Source: Clostridia bacterium
GTDB taxonomy: Bacteria > Bacillota > Clostridia > Oscillospirales > Acutalibacteraceae
Direction: 5' to 3'
Length of the DNA: 58,441 nt
Assembly: GCA_017517665.1 (NCBI GenBank)
Contig: JAFWYP010000030.1
Location: forward strand, 1 to 58,441
Shown one piece after another: positions 2,774-13,739 of the stretch. Under the pieces are notes generated by a model. The model did not search any database. It was not told the origin of the DNA and saw only the letters and a list, made by a program, of their open reading frames with translations. The number at the start of each line of letters is the position of its first letter. The first letter of the stretch is position 1. The position numbers and the translations under genes are program-made.

Positions 2774-3064
2774 TTACGCAGTTTCCTTGAGTTCTCTCTC
2801 AAGCCAGATGCATCCGATATCCATTGCGCTGTAGATGCCTCTACGCTCTGCTTTCTTGACAATCTTGTCTTTCATTCTGACATCAGGGTCTGTATTGACA
2901 AGCTGAACAACAACTCTGTCAGCAACCTCAACACCCTTGATTTCTCTTGTGCTGGTTATCTGCATTATAACAACATAAGGGTCGGACATATAGCCGTAAT
3001 AAATTGTTTTACCGCTTCTGACAAGAGGTCTGCCCTTATACATAAGAAACTTTTTCTTTGCCAC
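2774..3064 (-). CDS. Small conserved-looking protein of unknown function, co-transcribed with ireB
   Basis: 96 residues starting at a GTG with a good ribosome site (GGAGTG, 5 nt spacing). It is lysine-rich at the N terminus (MAKKKF), has no Cys-pair metal motif beyond a single Cys, no signal peptide and no membrane segment. Beta-rich stretches (DPYVVIMQI and DRVVVQLV) are followed by a charged helix. It lies 21 nt after ireB and before a terminator, so the two form a two-gene operon. In many Firmicutes ireB is followed instead by the ruvX/yqgF resolvase gene, which is absent here. I do not recognise the family; the compact basic architecture would suit a cytoplasmic nucleic-acid or ribosome-associated factor, but that is a guess. 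Confidence 0.75.
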   Translation of the reverse strand: MAKKKFLMYKGRPLVRSGKTIYYGYMSDPYVVIMQITSTREIKGVEVADRVVVQLVNTDPDVRMKDKIVKKAERRGIYSAMDIGCIWLERELKETA

Positions 3065-3085
3065 GTTATCACTCCTTCTGGTTAA

Positions 3086-3334
3086 TTATTTAATTCCGAG
3101 ATAGCACTTAACCATAGCCTGAAGAAGTTCATCTCTGTCGAGTCTTCTGACAAGACTGCGTGCGTTATTATGTGTTGTGATATAAGTCGGGTCCTCGGAA
3201 AGGATATAGCCGACAATCTGGCTGATTGAGTTATAACCCTTTTCGTTCAAAGCTTCATAAACAGCGAGAAGATTTTGCTTCATCTCACCCTCATTTTCAT
3301 CTTTAATTGAAAATTTTATTGTTTTATCAGTCAT
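3086..3334 (-). CDS. ireB: IreB family regulatory phosphoprotein (UPF0297)
   Basis: 82 residues, the normal length for the YrzL/IreB family. Diagnostic stretches are TIKFSIKDE near the N terminus, the centre GYNSISQIVGYILSEDPTYI, and the C-terminal RRLDRDELLQAMVKCYL. In Enterococcus IreB is phosphorylated by the PASTA kinase IreK and influences cephalosporin resistance; here it is presumably a cytoplasmic PASTA-kinase substrate. The start is the ATG at 3334 behind GGAGG with 8 nt spacing; a GTG three codons upstream overlaps the ribosome site and is less likely. A sigma-A promoter lies directly upstream. Confidence 0.93.
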   Translation of the reverse strand: MTDKTIKFSIKDENEGEMKQNLLAVYEALNEKGYNSISQIVGYILSEDPTYITTHNNARSLVRRLDRDELLQAMVKCYLGIK

Positions 3335-3358
3335 TTCGGTCACCTCCGTTACCTAACT

Positions 3359-3387
3359 ATTATATAACAGGTTTTCAAATAAAACAA
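3359..3387 (-). promoter_or_regulatory. Sigma-A promoter of ireB
   Basis: Minus strand TTGTTT (3382-3387), 17 nt, TATAAT (3359-3364), ending 25 nt upstream of the ireB start. It falls in the short gap after pheT, so ireB need not depend on pheST transcription. Confidence 0.7.
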
Positions 3388-3408
3388 GTGTTTTTTTTAA
3401 CTTTTAAC

Positions 3409-5772
3409 TTATGCTCTGAGAGAAACGCCGATTTGAGCAAGATTTTCAAGAATTATATTAATCCAACCCTGAACTTCTTCCATTTCAAGCGTTCTGTCCA
3501 TAGCGGCAAAATTAAGTCTTACGGTTATACTCTTAAAGCCGTCTTTCTCATAGGTATCAATAACCTTTATGCTTTCAAGCTCTGCAAGACTCAATGAATT
3601 CCAGCATTCTGCAAGTTCGGAATACTTAGTATTCTCACCGAGAACAAGTGAAAGATCATAATAAGTTGACTGCTGTGTGCTGGGCTCGGCGAAATGGATT
3701 GATGCGGCATCAAGAGTGCTGAATTTATCCATATCAATTTCAAAGCAAACAGCAGCTGCAGTTTTGTCAAACTTTGCTTTGTTTGCAGGATGAAGTGCGC
3801 AAAGTGTACCTACTTTTACACCGTCAATAAGAATTTCAGCAGTATTCTTGGGGTGCTGCCATGCGTGTTCGGGAGTAATCTTATTATATGCTGTAATCTT
3901 CTGCTTAACAGTTCCTATAATGCAGTTTATGATTTCAACAGCCTTGAGATATGCGGCTTTTTCATTTCCGCTCTTATCGTAAATAACTGCGCCGAGATGC
4001 TTTCTTTCATTGCAAAGACCGTTTTCGTCTGTTCCGGCAACAACTCTGCCAACCTCAAAGATACCGTATTTATCGGCAAAATCCTTGTTTTCCTGAGCCA
4101 TAACAAGAAGAGTGGGAAGCATTGAATTGCGAAGAACACCGTTATCGGAGTTTTCAATGTTGAGAACTTTTACATTATCCTCAACTTCAATACCGAGCTT
4201 CTTGAATTTTCTGCCGTCACACCATACATATGAATGAACTTCATGGAAGCCGTACTTTTTTACAAGAATATCCTTGATTTCATCGTCTTCCATTCGTGCA
4301 TAATCATTGGGAACGGGTTTGAGAGGACTGCTTGTTGTTGATATATTGAAATTATCATAGCCGTAGATACGGGTGATTTCTTCAATGATATCAGCCTTGA
4401 TTGTAACATCCTTTGTGGATCTCCATGAAGGCACTTTAACGGTATATTCACCGTTATCGAAATCAACAGCAAAACCGAGTGCGGTGAGTGTTTTCATAAT
4501 CTGCTCATCGCTGATGTCGATACCTGTGTAACGGTCAACATATTTCTTATCGAATGAAAGAGAAATTTCGGGATATTTTCTTACATATTCATCCGTAACC
4601 TTTGAAGCAACTCTTGCGCCCGAATCAATATCCTTTACAAGCTTAACGAATCTGCCGACAGCAGCCATTGTAAGCTCGGGGTCAAGCATCTTTTCGTATC
4701 TTGCGCTGGCATCTGTTCTGTGACCGAGTCTTGATGAAGATTTACGGATGCTTACACCGTCGAAGTTTGCGCTTTCAAGCACAACCGAACCTGTATCTTC
4801 AACAATTTCGGATTCAAGACCACCCATGATGCCTGCAATGCCAACGGGTGTATCGCCGTTGCAAATCATAAGAGTTTCTTCGTCGATAAGTCTTTCAACG
4901 CCGTCAAGAGTTTTGAAATTCATCTTCTCCTTGGGAGTTGTTACAACAATATTATCAATGGAATTTCCTGCAAAAGCATGAGTAGGCTGACCGATTTCAA
5001 GCATGATATAGTTTGTTACGTCTGCAAGAAGATTAATTCCTCTCATACCGCAGTAGTAAAGACGGATTCTCATATCAAGAGGGCTCTTGTTCTTTGTGAT
5101 ATTATCCATCTTGATGCATGAATATCTGTAAACAAGGTCTTCTCTGCCGATTGTAACATCAACTTTATCGTCGCCGTCATATGAAAGGTCACCCATTTCA
5201 AGAGGCTTGAGTTCTCTGCCTGCAAGTGCGGCAAGCTCTCTTGCAATACCGTAATGACCCCAAAGGTCGGGACGGTTTGTGAGTGATTTATTATCAACCT
5301 CAAAAATAATATCGTCGATGGGGAAAATATCCTTGATGTTTGTGCCGTTTTTGAGTGAGGGGTCAAGTTCCATGATTCCTGCATGATCATCGCTCAGACC
5401 AAGCTCTTTTTCTGAACAGCACATACCCTCTGATTCATAGCCTGCAACGGTTGCAACCTTGATTTCACCGCCGCATACTCTGCCGCCTGCAAGAGCAAGA
5501 GCAACCTTCTGACCTACAGCAACATTGGGTGCACCGCAAACGATGTTGCAAACCTTTTCACCTGCATTAACTTTGAGAAGGTGAAGCTTCTTTGAATTGG
5601 GATGATTTTCGACGGAAAGAATTTCACCAACAACAACGTTCTGAACATCCTCACCTTTGATAATTATATCTTCAACCTCTGCGGTTGCAAGAGTAAAACT
5701 TTCAATAAGCTTTTTAATATCCAGACCTTCAAGGTCAACATAATCTTTAATCCAGTTAATTGATACAAACAT
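3409..5772 (-). CDS. pheT: Phenylalanyl-tRNA synthetase beta subunit
   Basis: 787 residues, the usual bacterial length. An N-terminal EMAP/tRNA-binding fold (about 40-150, including VENHPNSKKLHLL) is followed by the B3/B4 editing domain, B5, the catalytic-like core, and a C-terminal anticodon-binding FDX-ACB domain. With PheS it forms the alpha2-beta2 enzyme that charges tRNA-Phe; the B3/B4 domain clears mischarged Tyr. Its start lies 3 nt after the pheS stop, so translation is probably coupled. Expression is controlled by the T-box ahead of pheS. Confidence 0.97.
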   Translation of the reverse strand: MFVSINWIKDYVDLEGLDIKKLIESFTLATAEVEDIIIKGEDVQNVVVGEILSVENHPNSKKLHLLKVNAGEKVCNIVCGAPNVAVGQKVALALAGGRVCGGEIKVATVAGYESEGMCCSEKELGLSDDHAGIMELDPSLKNGTNIKDIFPIDDIIFEVDNKSLTNRPDLWGHYGIARELAALAGRELKPLEMGDLSYDGDDKVDVTIGREDLVYRYSCIKMDNITKNKSPLDMRIRLYYCGMRGINLLADVTNYIMLEIGQPTHAFAGNSIDNIVVTTPKEKMNFKTLDGVERLIDEETLMICNGDTPVGIAGIMGGLESEIVEDTGSVVLESANFDGVSIRKSSSRLGHRTDASARYEKMLDPELTMAAVGRFVKLVKDIDSGARVASKVTDEYVRKYPEISLSFDKKYVDRYTGIDISDEQIMKTLTALGFAVDFDNGEYTVKVPSWRSTKDVTIKADIIEEITRIYGYDNFNISTTSSPLKPVPNDYARMEDDEIKDILVKKYGFHEVHSYVWCDGRKFKKLGIEVEDNVKVLNIENSDNGVLRNSMLPTLLVMAQENKDFADKYGIFEVGRVVAGTDENGLCNERKHLGAVIYDKSGNEKAAYLKAVEIINCIIGTVKQKITAYNKITPEHAWQHPKNTAEILIDGVKVGTLCALHPANKAKFDKTAAAVCFEIDMDKFSTLDAASIHFAEPSTQQSTYYDLSLVLGENTKYSELAECWNSLSLAELESIKVIDTYEKDGFKSITVRLNFAAMDRTLEMEEVQGWINIILENLAQIGVSLRA

Positions 5773-5775
5773 TTC

Positions 5776-6855
5776 TTATGCCTCCTTGCTTTCTTCAGGT
5801 CTGGTGAATGAGTTTGCGGTAAACTGTGAAAGTGATTTGAGGTTACCGCTGTTGAATACACGGATATCCTTAACACCGTAGGTCATCATTGCAAGTCTTG
5901 TCATGCCGAGACCAAATGCAAATCCAATATATTTTTCGGGATCAATGCCTGCCGCTGTAAGAACATTGGGATGAATCATGCCGCAGGGGCAGAGTTCAAG
6001 CCAACCTGAATCTTTGCAGGAAGGGCATCCCTTACCCTTACAGATTGTGCACTGAATATCAAGCTCAAAACCGGGTTCAACAAAGGGGAAGAAACCGGGG
6101 CGGAGTCTTACTGTGATATCCTTCTGGAAAACCTCGGAAAGCATTGTTTTCATGAAATAAATAAGGTTTGAAATTGAGATATCCTTATCAACCATGATTC
6201 CTTCCATCTGGAAGAAGGTGTTTTCATGGCAAGCATCAATTTTTTCGTTTCTGAAGCATCTGCCGGGGAAAATAGCTCTGATGGGATTGCCGTTTTCAAG
6301 GTTTGCGGCATACTTACGGAGAATTGTATTCTGTGCGGCAGATGTATGAGTTTTAAGAAGCTGACCTGTGCTGAGATAATAAGTATCCTGCATATCTCTT
6401 GCAGGGTGATGCTTCGGGATATTGAGTGCCTCAAAACAGTTATAGTCATCGGTAATCTCGGAATAATCTTCAATTGAGAAGCCCATGCTCAGGAAGATAT
6501 TTTCAACTCTGCGCTTTGTAAGAGTGATGGGATGGTAGGAACCGAGACCTGCATCGGTGGGCATGGATTCGTCATAGCTTTCTGCGCTGTCGATAAGCTT
6601 CTGTTCTTCAAGAGCTTTGAGTTCTTCAAGTTTTGCGGCAATTGCAGCTTCAACAAACTGCTTTGTGTCGTTTATTGCCTGACCTGCCTCTTTCTTCTGT
6701 TCGTTGGGTACATTGCGAAGTTCCTGCATAAGCGAGGAAACAGAACCTTTTTTGCCGAGAAACTCAATTCTCAACTGTTCGATTTCAGAAGTTGCAGTTA
6801 CTGCCGAAAGTTTTTCTTCAAACAGCTTTTTTAATTCTGCGGTTTTTTCAAACAT
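5776..6855 (-). CDS. pheS: Phenylalanyl-tRNA synthetase alpha subunit
   Basis: 359 residues with an N-terminal coiled coil (about 1-90) that contacts tRNA, then the class II catalytic core. Motif 2 lies in the FPGRCFRNEKIDACH region and motif 3 in GFAFGLGMTRLAMM. Cys-rich segments (CTICKGKGCPSCKD) resemble the family's metal-binding-like insert seen in many clostridial PheS proteins. The gene is first in the pheST operon, about 25 nt downstream of a T-box terminator, with ribosome site AAAGGATT. Confidence 0.97.
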   Translation of the reverse strand: MFEKTAELKKLFEEKLSAVTATSEIEQLRIEFLGKKGSVSSLMQELRNVPNEQKKEAGQAINDTKQFVEAAIAAKLEELKALEEQKLIDSAESYDESMPTDAGLGSYHPITLTKRRVENIFLSMGFSIEDYSEITDDYNCFEALNIPKHHPARDMQDTYYLSTGQLLKTHTSAAQNTILRKYAANLENGNPIRAIFPGRCFRNEKIDACHENTFFQMEGIMVDKDISISNLIYFMKTMLSEVFQKDITVRLRPGFFPFVEPGFELDIQCTICKGKGCPSCKDSGWLELCPCGMIHPNVLTAAGIDPEKYIGFAFGLGMTRLAMMTYGVKDIRVFNSGNLKSLSQFTANSFTRPEESKEA

Positions 6856-6880
6856 TTATATCAATCCTTTCATTTTTTAC

Positions 6881-6911
6881 AAAATAAAAATCCCCCGTCA
6901 AAAGACGAGGG
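6881..6911 (-). terminator. T-box regulated terminator
   Basis: Minus strand stem CCCTCGTC / GACGGGGG (6904-6911 with 6892-6899) with a TTTT loop, then ATTTTTATTTT. It overlaps the antiterminator segment that follows the T-box sequence, as expected for an attenuating T-box. Confidence 0.85.
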
Positions 6912-7127
6912 ACGAATAAAATCCGCGGTACCACCCTGATTCACGGCATAAGCCGTGCGCTCATTGTCCGTAACGGGGACAGCCGTTGAAGCCTACTGTT
7001 GTTTCAGCCTCACCGCTAACGGGTGAACTTCGGTAAAACACTTCACAATCCGCTTTCAGCCGATGACGGATTTTCTCTGCAGTGAGTTGATTTTACCTAC
7101 TCTCCCGATCATTGCGTTTGAAATATC
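6888..7127 (-). promoter_or_regulatory. T-box leader controlling pheST
   Basis: About 240 nt of untranslated leader on the minus strand. The invariant T-box motif AGGGTGGTACCGCG lies at 6922-6937 and a terminator at its 3' end. The 5' part holds a GAGAGTAGGTAAAA segment typical of the base of Stem I, which can pair with TTTTACC further on. The leader senses uncharged tRNA: binding stabilises the antiterminator and permits pheST transcription. The gene context implies tRNA-Phe, but I could not place the specifier codon with certainty. Confidence 0.92.
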
Positions 7128-7133
7128 CTAAAT

Positions 7134-7162
7134 AATATATCACATATATTTCTGATTTGCAA
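7134..7162 (-). promoter_or_regulatory. Sigma-A promoter of the pheST T-box transcript
   Basis: Minus strand TTGCAA (7157-7162), 17 nt, TATATT (7134-7139). It starts only 4 nt past the ligA stop codon, giving a transcript start near 7127 that matches the 5' end of the T-box fold. Confidence 0.75.
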
Positions 7163-7165
7163 GCA

Positions 7166-9546
<2,381 letters not shown>

Positions 9547-9558
9547 TAATTCAACATC

Positions 9559-10761
9559 CTATTCAAGTTCTTTAAGTGCATCGGTGAAAAGTTCAACACT
9601 TCTTCTGAGTATGCCGTGCATATGAGCGATTGCCGTTCCGTAATTTGTCATAGGAACACCGCAATCGGCAGCAAATCCCATTCTTGACTGCATTTCACGG
9701 GCATTTAGCATACATGCGCCGCAATGAACAACCAACGCATAATCCGATAGATCGTCGGGGAATTCTCCACCTGATGTAAAAGCAAAATCAACGTTCTTTT
9801 TCGTATGATTTTTTATCCAGTTCGGCAATTTGACCGTACCGATATCATTGCACTGCCTATGGTGGGTACATCCTTCCGAAATAAGAACGGTATCACCGTC
9901 TTTGAGTTTATCAAGCGTTGCCGCACCTCTTACCGCAGAAACAAGGTCACCCTTGTATCTTGCAAAAAGAATGGAAAAAGAGGTAAGCGGAATATCATCG
10001 GGAGTTATTTCGGACACTCTGCCGAATGCCTGCGAATCGGTGATAACAAGTTTCGGTTTTTTACCGAGAGAATCAAGTGTTTCGGAAAGCTCCGTATCAC
10101 GGCAGACAACCGCAGCAGCTCCGTTTTCTATAAGCTCTCTTATCACTTGCTGCTGAGGAAGAATGAGTCTGCCCCTGGGTGCGGATTCATCAATCGGAAC
10201 AACAAGAACAACAATATCTCCTTTTTCAATAAGATCAGCAATGATTTTTTTGCTGTTTTCCTTTTGTTTTGCAAATGAAGCAATTTTTTCTTTCAGAAGA
10301 TTGATGTTATCACCGTTGAAGGCACTGACATAAATCTCATTTTCTTTGTTCCCGGGAATTTCAGATAATAAATCGGATTTGTTAAAAACAACAATATACG
10401 GAATATTTTTCTTTTTAAAAAGCGAAATCAGTTCATTATCAAGAGTCTGAATTCCCTTTGGTGCATCGACAACAAGAACGGCAATATCAACAATATTCAG
10501 CATTTGCTTCGCACGCTTGACACGCATTTCGCCAAGCTCTCCCTCATCATCAACACCCGGTGTATCAATAATAACAACGGGCCCGAGAGGAAGAAGCTCC
10601 ATTGCTTTTTTTACGGGGTCTGTTGTTGTACCTTTAACATCGGAAACAAGAGAAAGACTCTGACCGGTAACAGCATTGACAACGCTTGACTTACCTGCAT
10701 TTCTTAGTCCGAAAAATCCGATATGGATTCTTTCAGCTGAAACAGTATTGTTAAGACTCAT
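9559..10761 (-). CDS. hydF: [FeFe] hydrogenase H-cluster maturation GTPase HydF
   Basis: 400 residues. A TrmE/Era-like GTPase domain comes first, with the P-loop GLRNAGKSS at 18-26, a DTPG switch II motif and NKSD. A dimerisation domain follows, then a C-terminal cluster-binding domain with C-x-H (CTHH) and HCGAC, the expected [4Fe-4S] ligands. HydF is the scaffold on which the 2Fe subcluster made by HydE and HydG is assembled and handed to the hydrogenase. It is third of the maturases in this operon, after a short hairpin-containing gap. No hydrogenase structural gene is in the window. Confidence 0.96.
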   Translation of the reverse strand: MSLNNTVSAERIHIGFFGLRNAGKSSVVNAVTGQSLSLVSDVKGTTTDPVKKAMELLPLGPVVIIDTPGVDDEGELGEMRVKRAKQMLNIVDIAVLVVDAPKGIQTLDNELISLFKKKNIPYIVVFNKSDLLSEIPGNKENEIYVSAFNGDNINLLKEKIASFAKQKENSKKIIADLIEKGDIVVLVVPIDESAPRGRLILPQQQVIRELIENGAAAVVCRDTELSETLDSLGKKPKLVITDSQAFGRVSEITPDDIPLTSFSILFARYKGDLVSAVRGAATLDKLKDGDTVLISEGCTHHRQCNDIGTVKLPNWIKNHTKKNVDFAFTSGGEFPDDLSDYALVVHCGACMLNAREMQSRMGFAADCGVPMTNYGTAIAHMHGILRRSVELFTDALKELE

Positions 10762-10777
10762 ATTTAATCTCCAAAAC

Positions 10778-10799
10778 GGCAGGATGCGGGCATCCTGCC
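10778..10799 (-). promoter_or_regulatory. Intercistronic hairpin between hydG and hydF
   Basis: A perfect 9-bp stem GGCAGGATG / CATCCTGCC with a 4-nt loop. On the minus strand it is followed by GTTTTGGAG, too short a U-run for an efficient terminator. It may cause partial termination, or serve as a processing or stability element that sets the hydF level. Confidence 0.5.
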
Positions 10800-10815
10800 C
10801 TGCAATATAATTTTA

Positions 10816-12264
10816 TTAAAATCTGAAGTCGCGGCGGTTTGAATTCTTGATATCCTCAATATTCTGCGTTGCAATTTTTCTGACCTTTTCGCCCGGAATT
10901 TTCTTGAGTTCGTTTTCAATCATTTCAAAACCGATTTTCTTGGTCAAGGGACTTGCATAGTCAACGAGATATTCGGTTAGAGTCATAAGCGCATTGGGGT
11001 GGCAGCAATTGAGAATCTGTCCGTTTTTGCAAAGTGCCATAAATCTGTCGCCTGTTCTGCCCTCACTGTAGCAAGCGGTACAGAATGAAGGAATATGTTT
11101 GAGCTCCATGAGCCAGCGTACAACCTCATCAAGCGTTCTCTGGTCGGAAACATCAAACTGCTCGGAATCGTGAGGTCTTTCTTCTTCGGTATAACCTCCC
11201 ACGGACGTTCTTGATGCACCGCTTATCTGTGAAATACCGAGATTGAGTGCTCTGCCTCTGACAGCCTCGGATTCGCGTGTTGATATAATCATTCCTGTGT
11301 ATGGAACGGCAATTCTGATGCAGGCAATAAGCTTTTCAAAAAGCTCATCGGAGATACCGTTATCAAATGTATCGGGGTCAATATCATCGGCTCTTTTGAG
11401 TCTGGGTACGCTGATTGTGTGAGGTCCTACGCCATGAACAGCCTCAAGATGCTCTGCGTGCATAAGAAGTCCCGCAAACTCATATTTATAAAGCTCAAGA
11501 CCGAAAAGAACGCCGAGTCCGACATCGTCAATTCCGCCTTCCATGGCCCTATCCATAGCTTCGGTATGATAATCATAATCATGCTTCGGACCTGTGGGAT
11601 GAAGCTTGAGATAGCTTTCCTTATGATATGTTTCCTGGAAAAGAATATAGGTTCCGATTCCGGCATCCTTAAGTTTTCGATAGTTTTCAACAGTCGTTGC
11701 CGCAATATTAACATTAACACGGCGGATTGCACCGTTTTTATGATTGATGGAATATATTGTTTTGATGCTTTCAAGGATATATTCAATAGGATTATTTACA
11801 GGGTCTTCACCGGCTTCGATTGCAAGACGCTTGTGACCCATATCCTGAAGCGCAATAACTTCATTTTTGATTTCTTCCTGAGTAAGCTTTTTACGGGCAA
11901 TATGCTTATTCTTAAGATGATAAGGACAGTAAACACAGCCGTTTACGCAGTAATTGGAAAGATAAAGAGGAGCGAACATAACGATTCTGTTGCCGTAAAA
12001 ACGAAGCTTGATTTCCTCGGCAAGCTTATACATCTGTTCAACCTTTTCCGGAATATCACATGCAAGAAGCACCGAAGCTTCTCTGTGAGTGAGTCCGCTG
12101 CAAACCGTGCCGTCTGCGGTTACACGGGGACGTGCCTTTTCAAGAATGCTGTCGATAAGCTCAACGTTGTTTTTGTTCTGCTCTGCATATTCAAGTGTTG
12201 CGAGAATTTCCTCATTATTGATAAATTCTTCGGCTTTCAATGATTTTGGATTGTAAATTGCCAT
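10816..12264 (-). CDS. hydG: [FeFe] hydrogenase H-cluster radical SAM maturase HydG
   Basis: 482 residues. The radical-SAM motif C-x3-C-x2-C is C106, C110 and C113 (CVNGCVYC). A BATS domain and the long C-terminal auxiliary-cluster region with CTACYSEG and LNCCHPNA follow. HydG cleaves tyrosine to make the CO and cyanide ligands of the H-cluster as Fe(CO)2CN synthons. The length and C-terminal cysteines separate it from ThiH. It follows hydE by 18 nt on the same strand. Confidence 0.96.
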   Translation of the reverse strand: MAIYNPKSLKAEEFINNEEILATLEYAEQNKNNVELIDSILEKARPRVTADGTVCSGLTHREASVLLACDIPEKVEQMYKLAEEIKLRFYGNRIVMFAPLYLSNYCVNGCVYCPYHLKNKHIARKKLTQEEIKNEVIALQDMGHKRLAIEAGEDPVNNPIEYILESIKTIYSINHKNGAIRRVNVNIAATTVENYRKLKDAGIGTYILFQETYHKESYLKLHPTGPKHDYDYHTEAMDRAMEGGIDDVGLGVLFGLELYKYEFAGLLMHAEHLEAVHGVGPHTISVPRLKRADDIDPDTFDNGISDELFEKLIACIRIAVPYTGMIISTRESEAVRGRALNLGISQISGASRTSVGGYTEEERPHDSEQFDVSDQRTLDEVVRWLMELKHIPSFCTACYSEGRTGDRFMALCKNGQILNCCHPNALMTLTEYLVDYASPLTKKIGFEMIENELKKIPGEKVRKIATQNIEDIKNSNRRDFRF

Positions 12265-12282
12265 AATATATCATTCCTTTTA

Positions 12283-13326
12283 TTAAATTCTTTTGTAGTC
12301 GCCTCTGTCGGTTACGATTCTGTAGCCGATGGAGTTTATTTTATCTTCAAGAATTGCCTTGCCTTGTGCCGACTCGGCACCTGAAGAGAGTTTATTGTTA
12401 TAAAGCGAATATTTTACTCTTGTGTCAAGCGGTGAAAGATTCGGCATAACAACATTTGCGCCAGCAAGTATGCCCTTTTCTCTGCCGACGGGGTCAATAC
12501 TTCCGAGTGCGGTTGTGGCAGGCAGAAGAATTGACGGAGAAATCAGTCTGATTATTGAAAGAAGATAACAGGTCAGTTCAACCGTGCCGGGGGTATAATT
12601 ATTGAAAACGGTATCTTTGTGTGGAATAAACGGTCCTATTCCGCACATTTCGGGTTTAAATTCTTCAATGAATTTCAAGTCCTTTGCAAGATGCTCGCTC
12701 GTCTGAAACGGTGAGCCGACCATAAATCCGCAGCCCGTCTGAAATCCGATTTTTTTTAGATTTTCAAGACATTGCATTCTTTTATCAAAGGATAAATTAT
12801 CGGGATGAAGCTTCGCATAATGAGCTTTATCCGCAGTTTCATGGCGAAGCAGATAACGGTCTGCACCTGCATCAAAAAGCTTTTTATAGCTTTCATAGCT
12901 TCTCTCACCGAGTGACAGAGTAATTGCACAATCGGGATATCTTGTTTTTATTTCGGAAATGATATCACACATGACATCATCCGAAAAATACATATCCTCT
13001 CCGCCCTGCATGACAAAGGTTCGGAATCCGAGAGAATACCCGTTTTCACAGCATGATAAAATCTGCTCTTTGGTAAGTCTGAATCTATCGCAATTTTTGT
13101 TGCCGCCTCTTATTCCGCAATACAGACAGTCGTTTTTGCAAATATTGCTTATCTCAATCAGACCTCTGATAAAAACGGCATTACCGTAAATCTTTTTGCG
13201 GATATCAACTGCTTTTTCAGAAAGCATTGAAGCATATTCTTCGTTTCTGTTATCAATAAGATATTTATATTCATCTGCGGTCAGACTGTGTTCTTTTTCA
13301 AGTTTATTAATTAAATCAATCATCAT
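12283..13326 (-). CDS. hydE: [FeFe] hydrogenase H-cluster radical SAM maturase HydE
   Basis: 347 residues of BioB-like radical SAM fold with C63, C67 and C70 in CKNDCLYC. HydE acts with HydG and HydF to build the azadithiolate-bridged 2Fe subcluster. The start ATG-ATG overlaps the end of the regulator gene, so translation is probably coupled. The C-terminal half lacks the extra auxiliary-cluster cysteines of HydG, as expected. Confidence 0.95.
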   Translation of the reverse strand: MMIDLINKLEKEHSLTADEYKYLIDNRNEEYASMLSEKAVDIRKKIYGNAVFIRGLIEISNICKNDCLYCGIRGGNKNCDRFRLTKEQILSCCENGYSLGFRTFVMQGGEDMYFSDDVMCDIISEIKTRYPDCAITLSLGERSYESYKKLFDAGADRYLLRHETADKAHYAKLHPDNLSFDKRMQCLENLKKIGFQTGCGFMVGSPFQTSEHLAKDLKFIEEFKPEMCGIGPFIPHKDTVFNNYTPGTVELTCYLLSIIRLISPSILLPATTALGSIDPVGREKGILAGANVVMPNLSPLDTRVKYSLYNNKLSSGAESAQGKAILEDKINSIGYRIVTDRGDYKRI

Positions 13327-13573
13327 AAATCTTGTTTGAATAAGCCGCTTTGACGCTTATTCCGTCAATATTTCCTATTTTGCCCGTCATTGTCGAGATG
13401 ATATCCTGAGATGCATCAACGGCAAGACTGACAATGCTGATGTTTCTTTCTCTGTATGGCAAACCCATTCTGCCGACGATATATTCACCGTATTCATGAA
13501 GCAAAGAATTCAGCTTTTCAACAGAATCTTTGTTTTCGATTATTATACCCACAACGGCAATTCTCTTTTCCAT
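13316..13573 (-). CDS. TM1266-type iron-only hydrogenase system regulator (ACT-like)
   Basis: 85 residues with an ACT/NikR-like beta-alpha-beta layout (RIAVVGIIIE..., then NISIVSLAVDAS). This family of small proteins is found next to hydEFG in Clostridia and Thermotoga and is named a putative hydrogenase-system regulator, but its ligand and action are unknown. It has no DNA-binding helix of its own. I start it at the ATG 8 nt after GGAG; a GTG three codons earlier is possible. It is first in the operon, directly behind a leader that can form alternative hairpins. Confidence 0.88.
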   Translation of the reverse strand: MEKRIAVVGIIIENKDSVEKLNSLLHEYGEYIVGRMGLPYRERNISIVSLAVDASQDIISTMTGKIGNIDGISVKAAYSNKIYDD

Positions 13574-13696
13574 TTTAACCACTCCGAAATAAAAATAACC
13601 GCACCCGAAAAGGCGCAGTTATACTATAAAATATGTATTTATAATATTATGCACCTTTCAATCGGAAGGAACAAATCCTTTCCTCGTGTCAGGATA
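13574..13696 (-). promoter_or_regulatory. Putative attenuator or riboswitch leader of the hydEGF operon
   Basis: About 120 nt separate the transcript start from the first gene. Near the end, AACTGCGCC (13612-13620) can pair with GGGTGCGGTT (13597-13606) to form a stem followed by ATTTTTATTT, an intrinsic terminator. The same GCGCCTTTTC segment can instead pair with GAAAGGTGC (13650-13658), enclosing an AU-rich stem, which would block the terminator. The 5' part holds short competing stems (ATCCT/AGGAT and CCTT/AAGG) that could be an aptamer. I do not recognise a known riboswitch class. Confidence 0.55.
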
Positions 13697-13701
13697 TTTT
13701 A

Positions 13702-13730
13702 ATTATATATTTTTATCGTCGGTTTGTCAA
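13702..13730 (-). promoter_or_regulatory. Consensus sigma-A promoter of the hydrogenase-maturation operon
   Basis: Minus strand TTGACA (13725-13730), exactly 17 nt, TATAAT (13702-13707). Both hexamers match consensus perfectly, so initiation should be strong and control is likely to act after initiation, in the leader. Confidence 0.88.
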
Positions 13731-13739
13731 TAATTTGTG

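What the first reader, a model, noticed from the sequence alone, without database searches (positions are those of the whole stretch)
13574..13735. Hydrogenase-maturation operon has a leader that can switch between terminator and antiterminator
Behind a perfect sigma-A promoter (TTGACA-17-TATAAT) the first gene is reached only after about 120 nt of untranslated RNA. The 3' part can form a terminator (AACTGCGCC with GGGTGCGGTT, then a U-run) or an alternative long hairpin in which GAAAGGTGC pairs with GCGCCTTTTC. A 5' segment with competing short stems could be a sensor. I know of no described riboswitch in front of hydEFG genes. A consensus promoter with an internal attenuator suggests that control acts in the RNA, perhaps by a metabolite tied to hydrogenase maturation.
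Basis: partly seen in the sequence, partly recalled or inferred. Interest (0 to 1): 0.72.

Follow-up and report, generated by a model that had tools for sequence, protein, structure and literature searches.

The report
Conserved RNA switch before hydrogenase-maturation genes
The mRNA in front of these hydrogenase-assembly genes starts with a small hairpin, conserved in many gut Clostridia, that appears to decide whether transcription stops early, and the small uncharacterised protein usually encoded right after it (TM1266 family) may be what binds it.

Summary
A perfect sigma-A promoter is followed by a leader of about 120 nt with mutually exclusive terminator and antiterminator. The leader belongs to an RNA family with no Rfam 15 match. 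A ~40-nt hairpin lies near the expected transcript start: CCUGACA-NNARG-[variable stem]-CYGNNUGAAAGG, then linker and terminator. Its stems covary, and the antiterminator pairs better with its own terminator than with swapped ones. Divergent versions precede TM1266 in other families of the class. The motif follows TM1266 rather than H-cluster chemistry: 14 genomes with motif-(TM1266)-ECF S component lack hydG, and 13 of 13 genomes tested whose motif sits before another gene encode TM1266 elsewhere (weak: hydE-bearing genomes carry it about 93% of the time). Two 2x2 loops, each with G opposite A, in near mirror arrangement would suit a dimeric protein. Best explanation: attenuation in which the hairpin is an anti-antiterminator bound by TM1266, working like PyrR. 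A small-molecule riboswitch is the main rival. No wet-lab evidence exists.

The parts
13702..13730 (-). sigma-A-type promoter, TTGACA-17-TATAAT
   Evidence: 12 of 12 consensus matches
13654..13693 (-). conserved core hairpin (candidate sensor / anti-antiterminator): CCU/AGG, GA/AA loop, CA/UG, second internal loop, variable P2 stem
   Evidence: model R1 hit G000:C33:13648-13697, E 1.1e-7 (the window was among the training rows); covariation in A1 and A3
13650..13659 (-). antiterminator 5' arm GAAAGGUGCA, overlaps the 3' side of the core hairpin
   Evidence: duplex with the terminator 5' arm, 10 pairs, -13.7 kcal/mol
13607..13617 (-). antiterminator 3' arm, shared with the terminator
13595..13622 (-). 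intrinsic terminator stem-loop, followed by a U-run
   Evidence: 12 pairs, 5 G-C
13316..13573 (-). TM1266-family gene (PF21699 / TIGR03959), first gene of the operon
   Evidence: TIGR03959 E 1.8e-35, PF21699 E 1.4e-33
12283..13326 (-). hydE
   Evidence: TIGR03956 E 6.5e-173
10816..12264 (-). hydG
   Evidence: TIGR03955 E 1e-278
9559..10761 (-). hydF
   Evidence: TIGR03918 E 1.1e-169

Best explanation
The leader is a transcription attenuator. Right after initiation the nascent RNA folds the conserved core hairpin (13693-13654). If that hairpin is held closed, the AGG of its 3' side cannot join the antiterminator (GAAAGGUGC with GCGCCUUUUC), the terminator at 13622-13595 forms, and TM1266-hydE-hydG-hydF stays off. 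If it is not held, the antiterminator forms and the operon is read. I think the factor that holds it is most likely the TM1266-family protein, a small conserved protein whose Pfam match covers nearly its whole length, giving autogenous feedback in the manner of PyrR, perhaps with a small effector bound to TM1266. Shown by computation: the conserved hairpin, its covariation, the terminator, the coevolving antiterminator, the genomic link to TM1266. Inferred: the direction (bound = off), TM1266 as binder, any effector.
For: Related leaders in five genomes of the genus and in front of TM1266 across genera. RNAalifold on 22 cores returns eight of my nine pairs unprompted. Pair counts beat 500 shuffles on 4 of 5 measures (90.9% paired, covariation 0.240 vs 0.114 sd 0.020; one of the four is reached by 2 of 500) and on 3 of 5 with 98 distinct rows (94.6% paired, 0.194 vs 0.056 sd 0.008). 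P2 stem: 1.73 consecutive inner pairs vs 0.72 sd 0.08 with halves swapped, 109 unique inserts. Subclass B, 14 rows: 6 of 7 pairs with double changes, 4 of 5 measures beyond all shuffles. Antiterminator with own terminator -14.06 vs -11.46 sd 0.21 swapped, 0 of 2000, n 125; -13.95 vs -12.65 when swapping only among leaders with the same first 8 nt, p 1.4e-6, n 115. Terminator score 25 or more in 88 of 133 leaders, in 0 of 133 for the mean of 3 shuffles each. Targets: of 117 pattern hits 88 have TM1266 first, 8 hydE first, 21 neither. TM1266 link: 14 of 14 genomes with motif-(TM1266)-ECF lack hydG, while 3 of 4 comparison genomes have it; TM1266 is present in all 13 tested genomes whose motif precedes another gene. 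TM1266 keeps six basic positions at 87-100% R/K in 263 distinct aligned stretches. Model R2 finds leaders upstream of TM1266 in other families of the class and, weakly, subclass A sites.
Against: No binding or transcription data. TM1266 occurs in 114 of 123 hydE-bearing genomes of the family sample (my count by eye), so the unlinked cases are expected about 4 times in 10 anyway. R1 has no match below E 0.5 in the 9 unlinked TM1266 loci; one of them (L232) holds a subclass B copy, which I used to train R2, and L267 holds the untested third type, so for most of the 13 no autogenous loop is visible. TM1266 could equally be a ligand-binding protein of a pathway sensed by a riboswitch. In most leaders the forced OFF state is computed as the more stable one (ON lower in 25 of 130). 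The count of further pair types does not exceed shuffles in A1, A3 or A5, nor the number of double-change pairs in A3. A loose two-loop descriptor was only weakly enriched in TM1266 leaders (65 of 139 vs mean 41.7, max 50 in shuffles). In 44 of 117 cores the second loop of subclass A is U opposite C beside the A opposite G, so its mirror likeness to the first loop is partial, and the A and G there are fixed by the scan pattern.
Confidence: 0.5

Rival explanations
1. A small-molecule or metal riboswitch: the core hairpin is the aptamer, and ligand binding closes it and causes termination. Candidate ligands would be something imported by the ECF transporter or linked to iron or H-cluster assembly.
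For: Conserved loop positions that avoid pairing (columns 13/36: 0 vs 21% expected); an element near the expected transcript start (10-12 nt after a -10-like hexamer in 63 of 127 leaders); transporters among the targets: ECF S component and FecCD/ABC.
Against: The element is a plain hairpin with two small internal loops; its subclasses change a lot in sequence; operons with and without H-cluster genes carry it. A pseudoknot was not searched for.
Confidence: 0.35
2. The attenuator is real but passive: partial termination sets a fixed low level of read-through, and the conserved hairpin acts in RNA stability or processing.
For: The two states are nearly isoenergetic in the window; nothing shows a signal.
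Against: The antiterminator coevolves with its own terminator and the hairpin's loops are conserved beyond what folding needs.
Confidence: 0.1
3. Leader-peptide attenuation or a chance hairpin.
For: Terminator-like sites are common in the region (23 found vs 9.2 expected in 10 kb).
Against: The linker varies in length and sequence and the GUG in the core is UUG, CUG or another triplet in some relatives, so there is no conserved start codon; no uORF statistic was computed. Covariation speaks against chance.
Confidence: 0.02

Closest known systems
PyrR attenuators of pyr operons (Rfam RF00515)
   Same: Anti-antiterminator hairpin with a purine-rich internal loop, then antiterminator, then terminator; the regulator's gene follows the first attenuator (mechanism read in passages of PMC7430163).
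   Different: Other sequence and target; RF00515 scores 23.9 bits against a cut-off of 54; the regulator would be TM1266, not PyrR.
ANTAR / EutV dual-hairpin antitermination
   Same: A dimeric protein reads a repeated RNA feature upstream of a terminator; a few TM1266 leaders hold two copies in tandem (passages of PMC3369931).
   Different: ANTAR RNAs carry hexaloops with important first and fourth letters; here the conserved letters lie in internal loops, and the hairpin competes with the antiterminator.
Orphan riboswitch candidates (Rfam and published surveys)
   Same: Short conserved 5'-UTR element with an expression platform.
   Different: No Rfam match; word searches in the main texts of the surveys I could open found no hydrogenase.
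Guanidine-IV / Gd4v
   Same: A hairpin followed by a terminator hairpin (section 4, part 1, of PMC9788692).
   Different: Those have a pseudoknot between the hairpins and other genes; a pseudoknot was not searched for here.

Membership tests
PyrR-type attenuator | anti-antiterminator / antiterminator / terminator architecture | tested here: met
   (computation only)
PyrR-type attenuator | match to the PyrR binding-site model RF00515 | tested here: not met
   23.9 bits, cut-off 54, E 0.18
PyrR-type attenuator | regulator encoded in the regulated operon and bound to the hairpin | tested here: inconclusive
   TM1266 is the first gene in 88 of 117 pattern hits; binding not testable here
metabolite riboswitch | conserved candidate aptamer coupled to an expression platform | tested here: met
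metabolite riboswitch | direct binding of a small ligand | not testable with these tools
   needs in-line probing or ITC
any Rfam 15 family | score above the gathering cut-off | tested here: not met
   no leader match in the window, in 16 loci with the R1-type motif or in 16 further loci; in 20 divergent loci at E up to 0.5 only one tRNA passes its cut-off
T-box | RF00230 match | tested here: not met
   only the separate T-box at 7121-6905 matches
guanidine-IV / Gd4v | pseudoknot linking hairpin and terminator | not tested
   compared by description only

The most novel reading that the evidence does not exclude
TM1266-family proteins are a new class of RNA-binding attenuation regulator. As dimers they read a pseudo-twofold hairpin (two 2x2 loops, each with G opposite A, 3-4 bp apart) near the 5' end of their own and related mRNAs across the class, controlling H-cluster maturation, an ECF transporter, and a nitrogenase-like cluster in which TM1266 is fused to an ABC ATPase.
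Probability: 0.4. Interest if true: 0.87.

Novelty: new variant of a known kind. Interest (0 to 1): 0.74.

Why it matters
Control of [FeFe]-hydrogenase maturation, central to H2 metabolism of gut and rumen Clostridia, has no described RNA regulator that I could find. The TM1266 family, named 'putative regulator' in NCBIfam and Pfam, gets a concrete and cheaply testable role. If a small ligand is the signal instead, the family is an orphan riboswitch whose targets (hydEFG, aspA-hydF, an ECF S component, FecCD/nitrogenase-like) narrow the search.

Tried and rejected
Leader peptide: no conserved start codon in the core. Known Rfam family: none. L10_leader reached E 0.0059 but 27.5 bits against a cut-off of 44, rnk_pseudo E 0.023 but 24.5 bits against 55; neither gene is here. 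A loose two-loop descriptor over 139 TM1266 leaders was only weakly enriched and I do not rely on it; 23 further TM1266 loci were dropped there because my script found no start codon. One search printed minus-strand loci unreversed; one search put that right. A first version of the P2 test failed through a pattern error and was redone (124 of 133 leaders fitted the pattern). The mean is spoiled by an infeasible constraint; I use medians and counts. My terminator finder is permissive: it returns something in 133 of 133 leaders and in shuffles of 94% of them, so only the score difference counts (mean 26.7 vs 9.0). A third leader type (GAGGGUUCGUCCC, 17 examples; 14 aligned) looks related, but its pairing was not tested. 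Structure prediction of the ECF-like protein was not available; a PDB sequence search found nothing; Pfam finds ECF S component in 12 of 14 members at E up to 0.1, best 3.2e-12, though not in L100 itself. The first hydG search had no positive control and was repeated with four comparison genomes.

A1 was picked by me from TM1266 and genus hits, A5 by eye. Most named records of the pattern scan are metagenome-assembled, so absences are soft. The 114-of-123 count is by eye. After checking, the probability of the novel case was lowered from 0.42 to 0.40, because the second loop of subclass A is often not all purine.

Full report
WHAT IS THERE. On the minus strand a perfect sigma-A promoter (12 of 12) precedes a leader of about 120 nt and the genes TM1266-hydE-hydG-hydF, then a Nudix gene and ligA. 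The leader folds far better than shuffles (z -4.1). Forced into core-plus-terminator it scores -30.7 kcal/mol, into the antiterminator -31.1.

IT IS CONSERVED. A DNA search of 45 genomes of the genus (the window's own included) returned five relatives with longer leader matches, 68-75% identical, E 7.5e-6 or better. Leaders upstream of TM1266 in other genera share an element not visible from one sequence: CCUGACA, two free bases, AAG or AGG, a stem of variable length, CUG or CCG, two bases, UGAAAGG. RNAalifold on 22 cores (A1) returns eight of the nine pairs I had proposed: CCU/AGG, then a GA/AA loop, CA/UG, a second loop, then a stem beginning R-G/C-Y. Pair counts exceed the shuffles on four of five measures (0, 2, 0 and 0 of 500 reach them), not on the number of further pair types, and exceed the slid versions on the same four. 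In 117 unique cores columns 12 and 37 tend to pair (81% against a mean of 72%, sd 2.2, with the best permutation reaching 83%), while columns 13 and 36 never do (0 against 21% expected), although they have the highest mutual information (0.61) after the stem pair 17/32.

HOW COMMON. Model R1 hits 36 of 300 genomes of the family at E up to 0.1 (28 at E below 0.001), 30 of 345 of the order at E up to 0.01 and 12 of 371 of the class at E up to 0.001; the last two lists include family members again. Of 34 of these loci that I classified by downstream genes, 30 precede TM1266 or hyd genes; the other four are L255 and L225 (below), L224 (contig end) and L226 (looks like chance). Of these, 96 stand in front of hyd-system genes, 88 with TM1266 first and 8 with hydE first and no TM1266 found (up to 4 kb downstream compared). 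Of the other 21, one (L100) precedes an ECF-like gene and five (L110, L126, L133, L167, L182) look genuine but are cut by the end of the stretch; L126 and L167 show the start of TM1266. The remaining 15 look like chance, in line with my own rough estimate of some tens for the whole collection (no call).

THE SWITCH. I extracted 133 distinct leaders. Downstream of the core 88 of 133 reach a terminator score of 25 or more, and none of the 133 means of three shuffles does. The core's 3' end pairs with its own terminator's 5' arm at -14.06 kcal/mol on average, against -11.46 sd 0.21 after swapping partners (0 of 2000, n 125). Swapping only among leaders that share the first 8 letters still gives -13.95 against -12.65 (p 1.4e-6, n 115). 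So the antiterminator appears to be kept by selection, and it uses letters of the core hairpin. This is the layout of an anti-antiterminator. OFF and ON forced energies lie within 5 kcal/mol in 80 of 130 leaders, with OFF lower by a median of 4.0 and ON lower in 25.

THE FAMILY IS WIDER. I fetched upstream regions of 40 TM1266 genes of the family in genomes without a strong R1 hit. By eye, most that have room for a leader carry a divergent version, often with the letters CUGAC...GRAAG. What models bear out is less: R2 reaches E below 0.01 in 11 of the 40, ten of them its own training rows, and the third-type pattern occurs in 6 more. One form, subclass B, reads P1-GA-4 bp-RA-small stem-GM-4 bp-RA-P1'. 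In 14 aligned examples 6 of 7 pairs show double changes, and the covariation score is 0.433 against 0.254 sd 0.034; RNAalifold gives six of those seven pairs and adds three in the inner stem. Model R2 was trained on those 14: 12 from the window's family, one from another family of the order, one from a genome of untold kinship. On 70 TM1266 loci of the class sample it gives 8 with E below 0.01, all just upstream of TM1266 and all outside the window's family. Five of these I had hand-picked and held out; L311 had been printed; L360 and L354 I had not looked at. Two R1-type sites (L330, L325) come next, at E 0.025 and 0.07. R2 also overlaps ten subclass A sites (nine TM1266 leaders and the aspA site), with weak E-values of 0.002 to 0.7. 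A few leaders hold two copies in tandem (L321, L326 and L053 by eye; L257).

WHAT IT FOLLOWS. Besides hydEGF operons the motif precedes TM1266 plus a membrane protein of about 180 aa in 13 loci, and that protein alone in L100; 12 of 14 members match the ECF S component family at E up to 0.1. None of these 14 genomes has hydG, while three of four comparison genomes do (the fourth, with motif-TM1266-hydF, has none). In G964 the motif precedes a fumarase/aspartase-family lyase, read as aspA, and a GTPase ORF read as hydF, which fits the report that aspartate ammonia-lyase can feed H-cluster assembly (passages of PMC11736057). In G625 a tandem copy (R1 E 0.003) precedes FecCD, an ABC ATPase fused to a TM1266 domain, hydE, a NifH-like and two nitrogenase-component-1-like proteins, a binding protein and hydF. 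All 16 genomes searched and all 6 encode TM1266, including the 13 whose motif sits before another gene. Because 114 of 123 hydE-bearing genomes in the family sample have TM1266 anyway (counted by eye), this is consistent rather than decisive. The hydG-less operons are the stronger argument that the motif is not about H-cluster chemistry alone.

INTERPRETATION. A hairpin with two 2x2 loops, each with a G opposite an A, in near mirror arrangement 3-4 bp apart, placed near the start of the transcript, acting as anti-antiterminator and tied to the gene that follows it, resembles the PyrR system (described in passages of PMC7430163). The mirror likeness is partial: in subclass A the second loop also holds U opposite C in 44 of 117 cores. 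TM1266's only Pfam match spans residues 4-76 of 85, leaving no room for a separate DNA-binding domain; a relative has a solved structure (2NZC); and the family keeps basic residues at positions 4, 35, 41, 43, 65 and 75 (87-100% R/K in 263 aligned stretches). I therefore favour TM1266 as the ligand of the RNA, at about even odds, with a small-molecule riboswitch second. That TM1266 has a ferredoxin-like fold and may dimerise is recalled, not tested. The existence of the attenuator itself I hold at about 0.9.

NOVELTY. No Rfam 15 family matches. Searches of the held papers listed no RNA regulator for this operon (listings only), and word searches in the main texts of several RNA-motif surveys found no hydrogenase (mentions a radical-SAM-linked RNA found mainly in Bacteroidetes). 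Supplementary files were not searched, and the 2017 survey of 224 RNAs (recalled) was not held, so a prior unnamed report cannot be excluded.

Noticed in passing
L257 (G625:C60) 2822-11619: Gene cluster FecCD permease - ABC ATPase fused to a C-terminal TM1266 domain - HydE - NifH-like - two nitrogenase-component-1-like proteins - periplasmic binding protein - HydF: a nitrogenase-like system joined to H-cluster maturases.
   Followed up: partly
L100, L094, L099, L107, L138-L140, L151, L159, L166, L170-L172, L197: Operon motif-TM1266-ECF S component (ECF alone in L100) in genomes without hydG; in five of the ten loci listed a long ORF of about 415-477 aa that reads like a membrane protein lies upstream of the motif.
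   Followed up: partly
window 6905-7121, minus strand: T-box leader (RF00230, 136 bits) in front of a gene pair that reads as pheS-pheT (gene names by reading the ORFs, no family search).
   Followed up: no
L331, L335, L318, L284, L356, L370 and others upstream of TM1266: A third leader type with a conserved GAGGGUUCGUCCC hairpin between CUGA and AAGG, spread over several families.
   Followed up: partly
L120, L125, L202, L203: Motif-TM1266-hydF without hydE or hydG found within 4 kb downstream; the genome of L120 has no hydG match at all.
   Followed up: no
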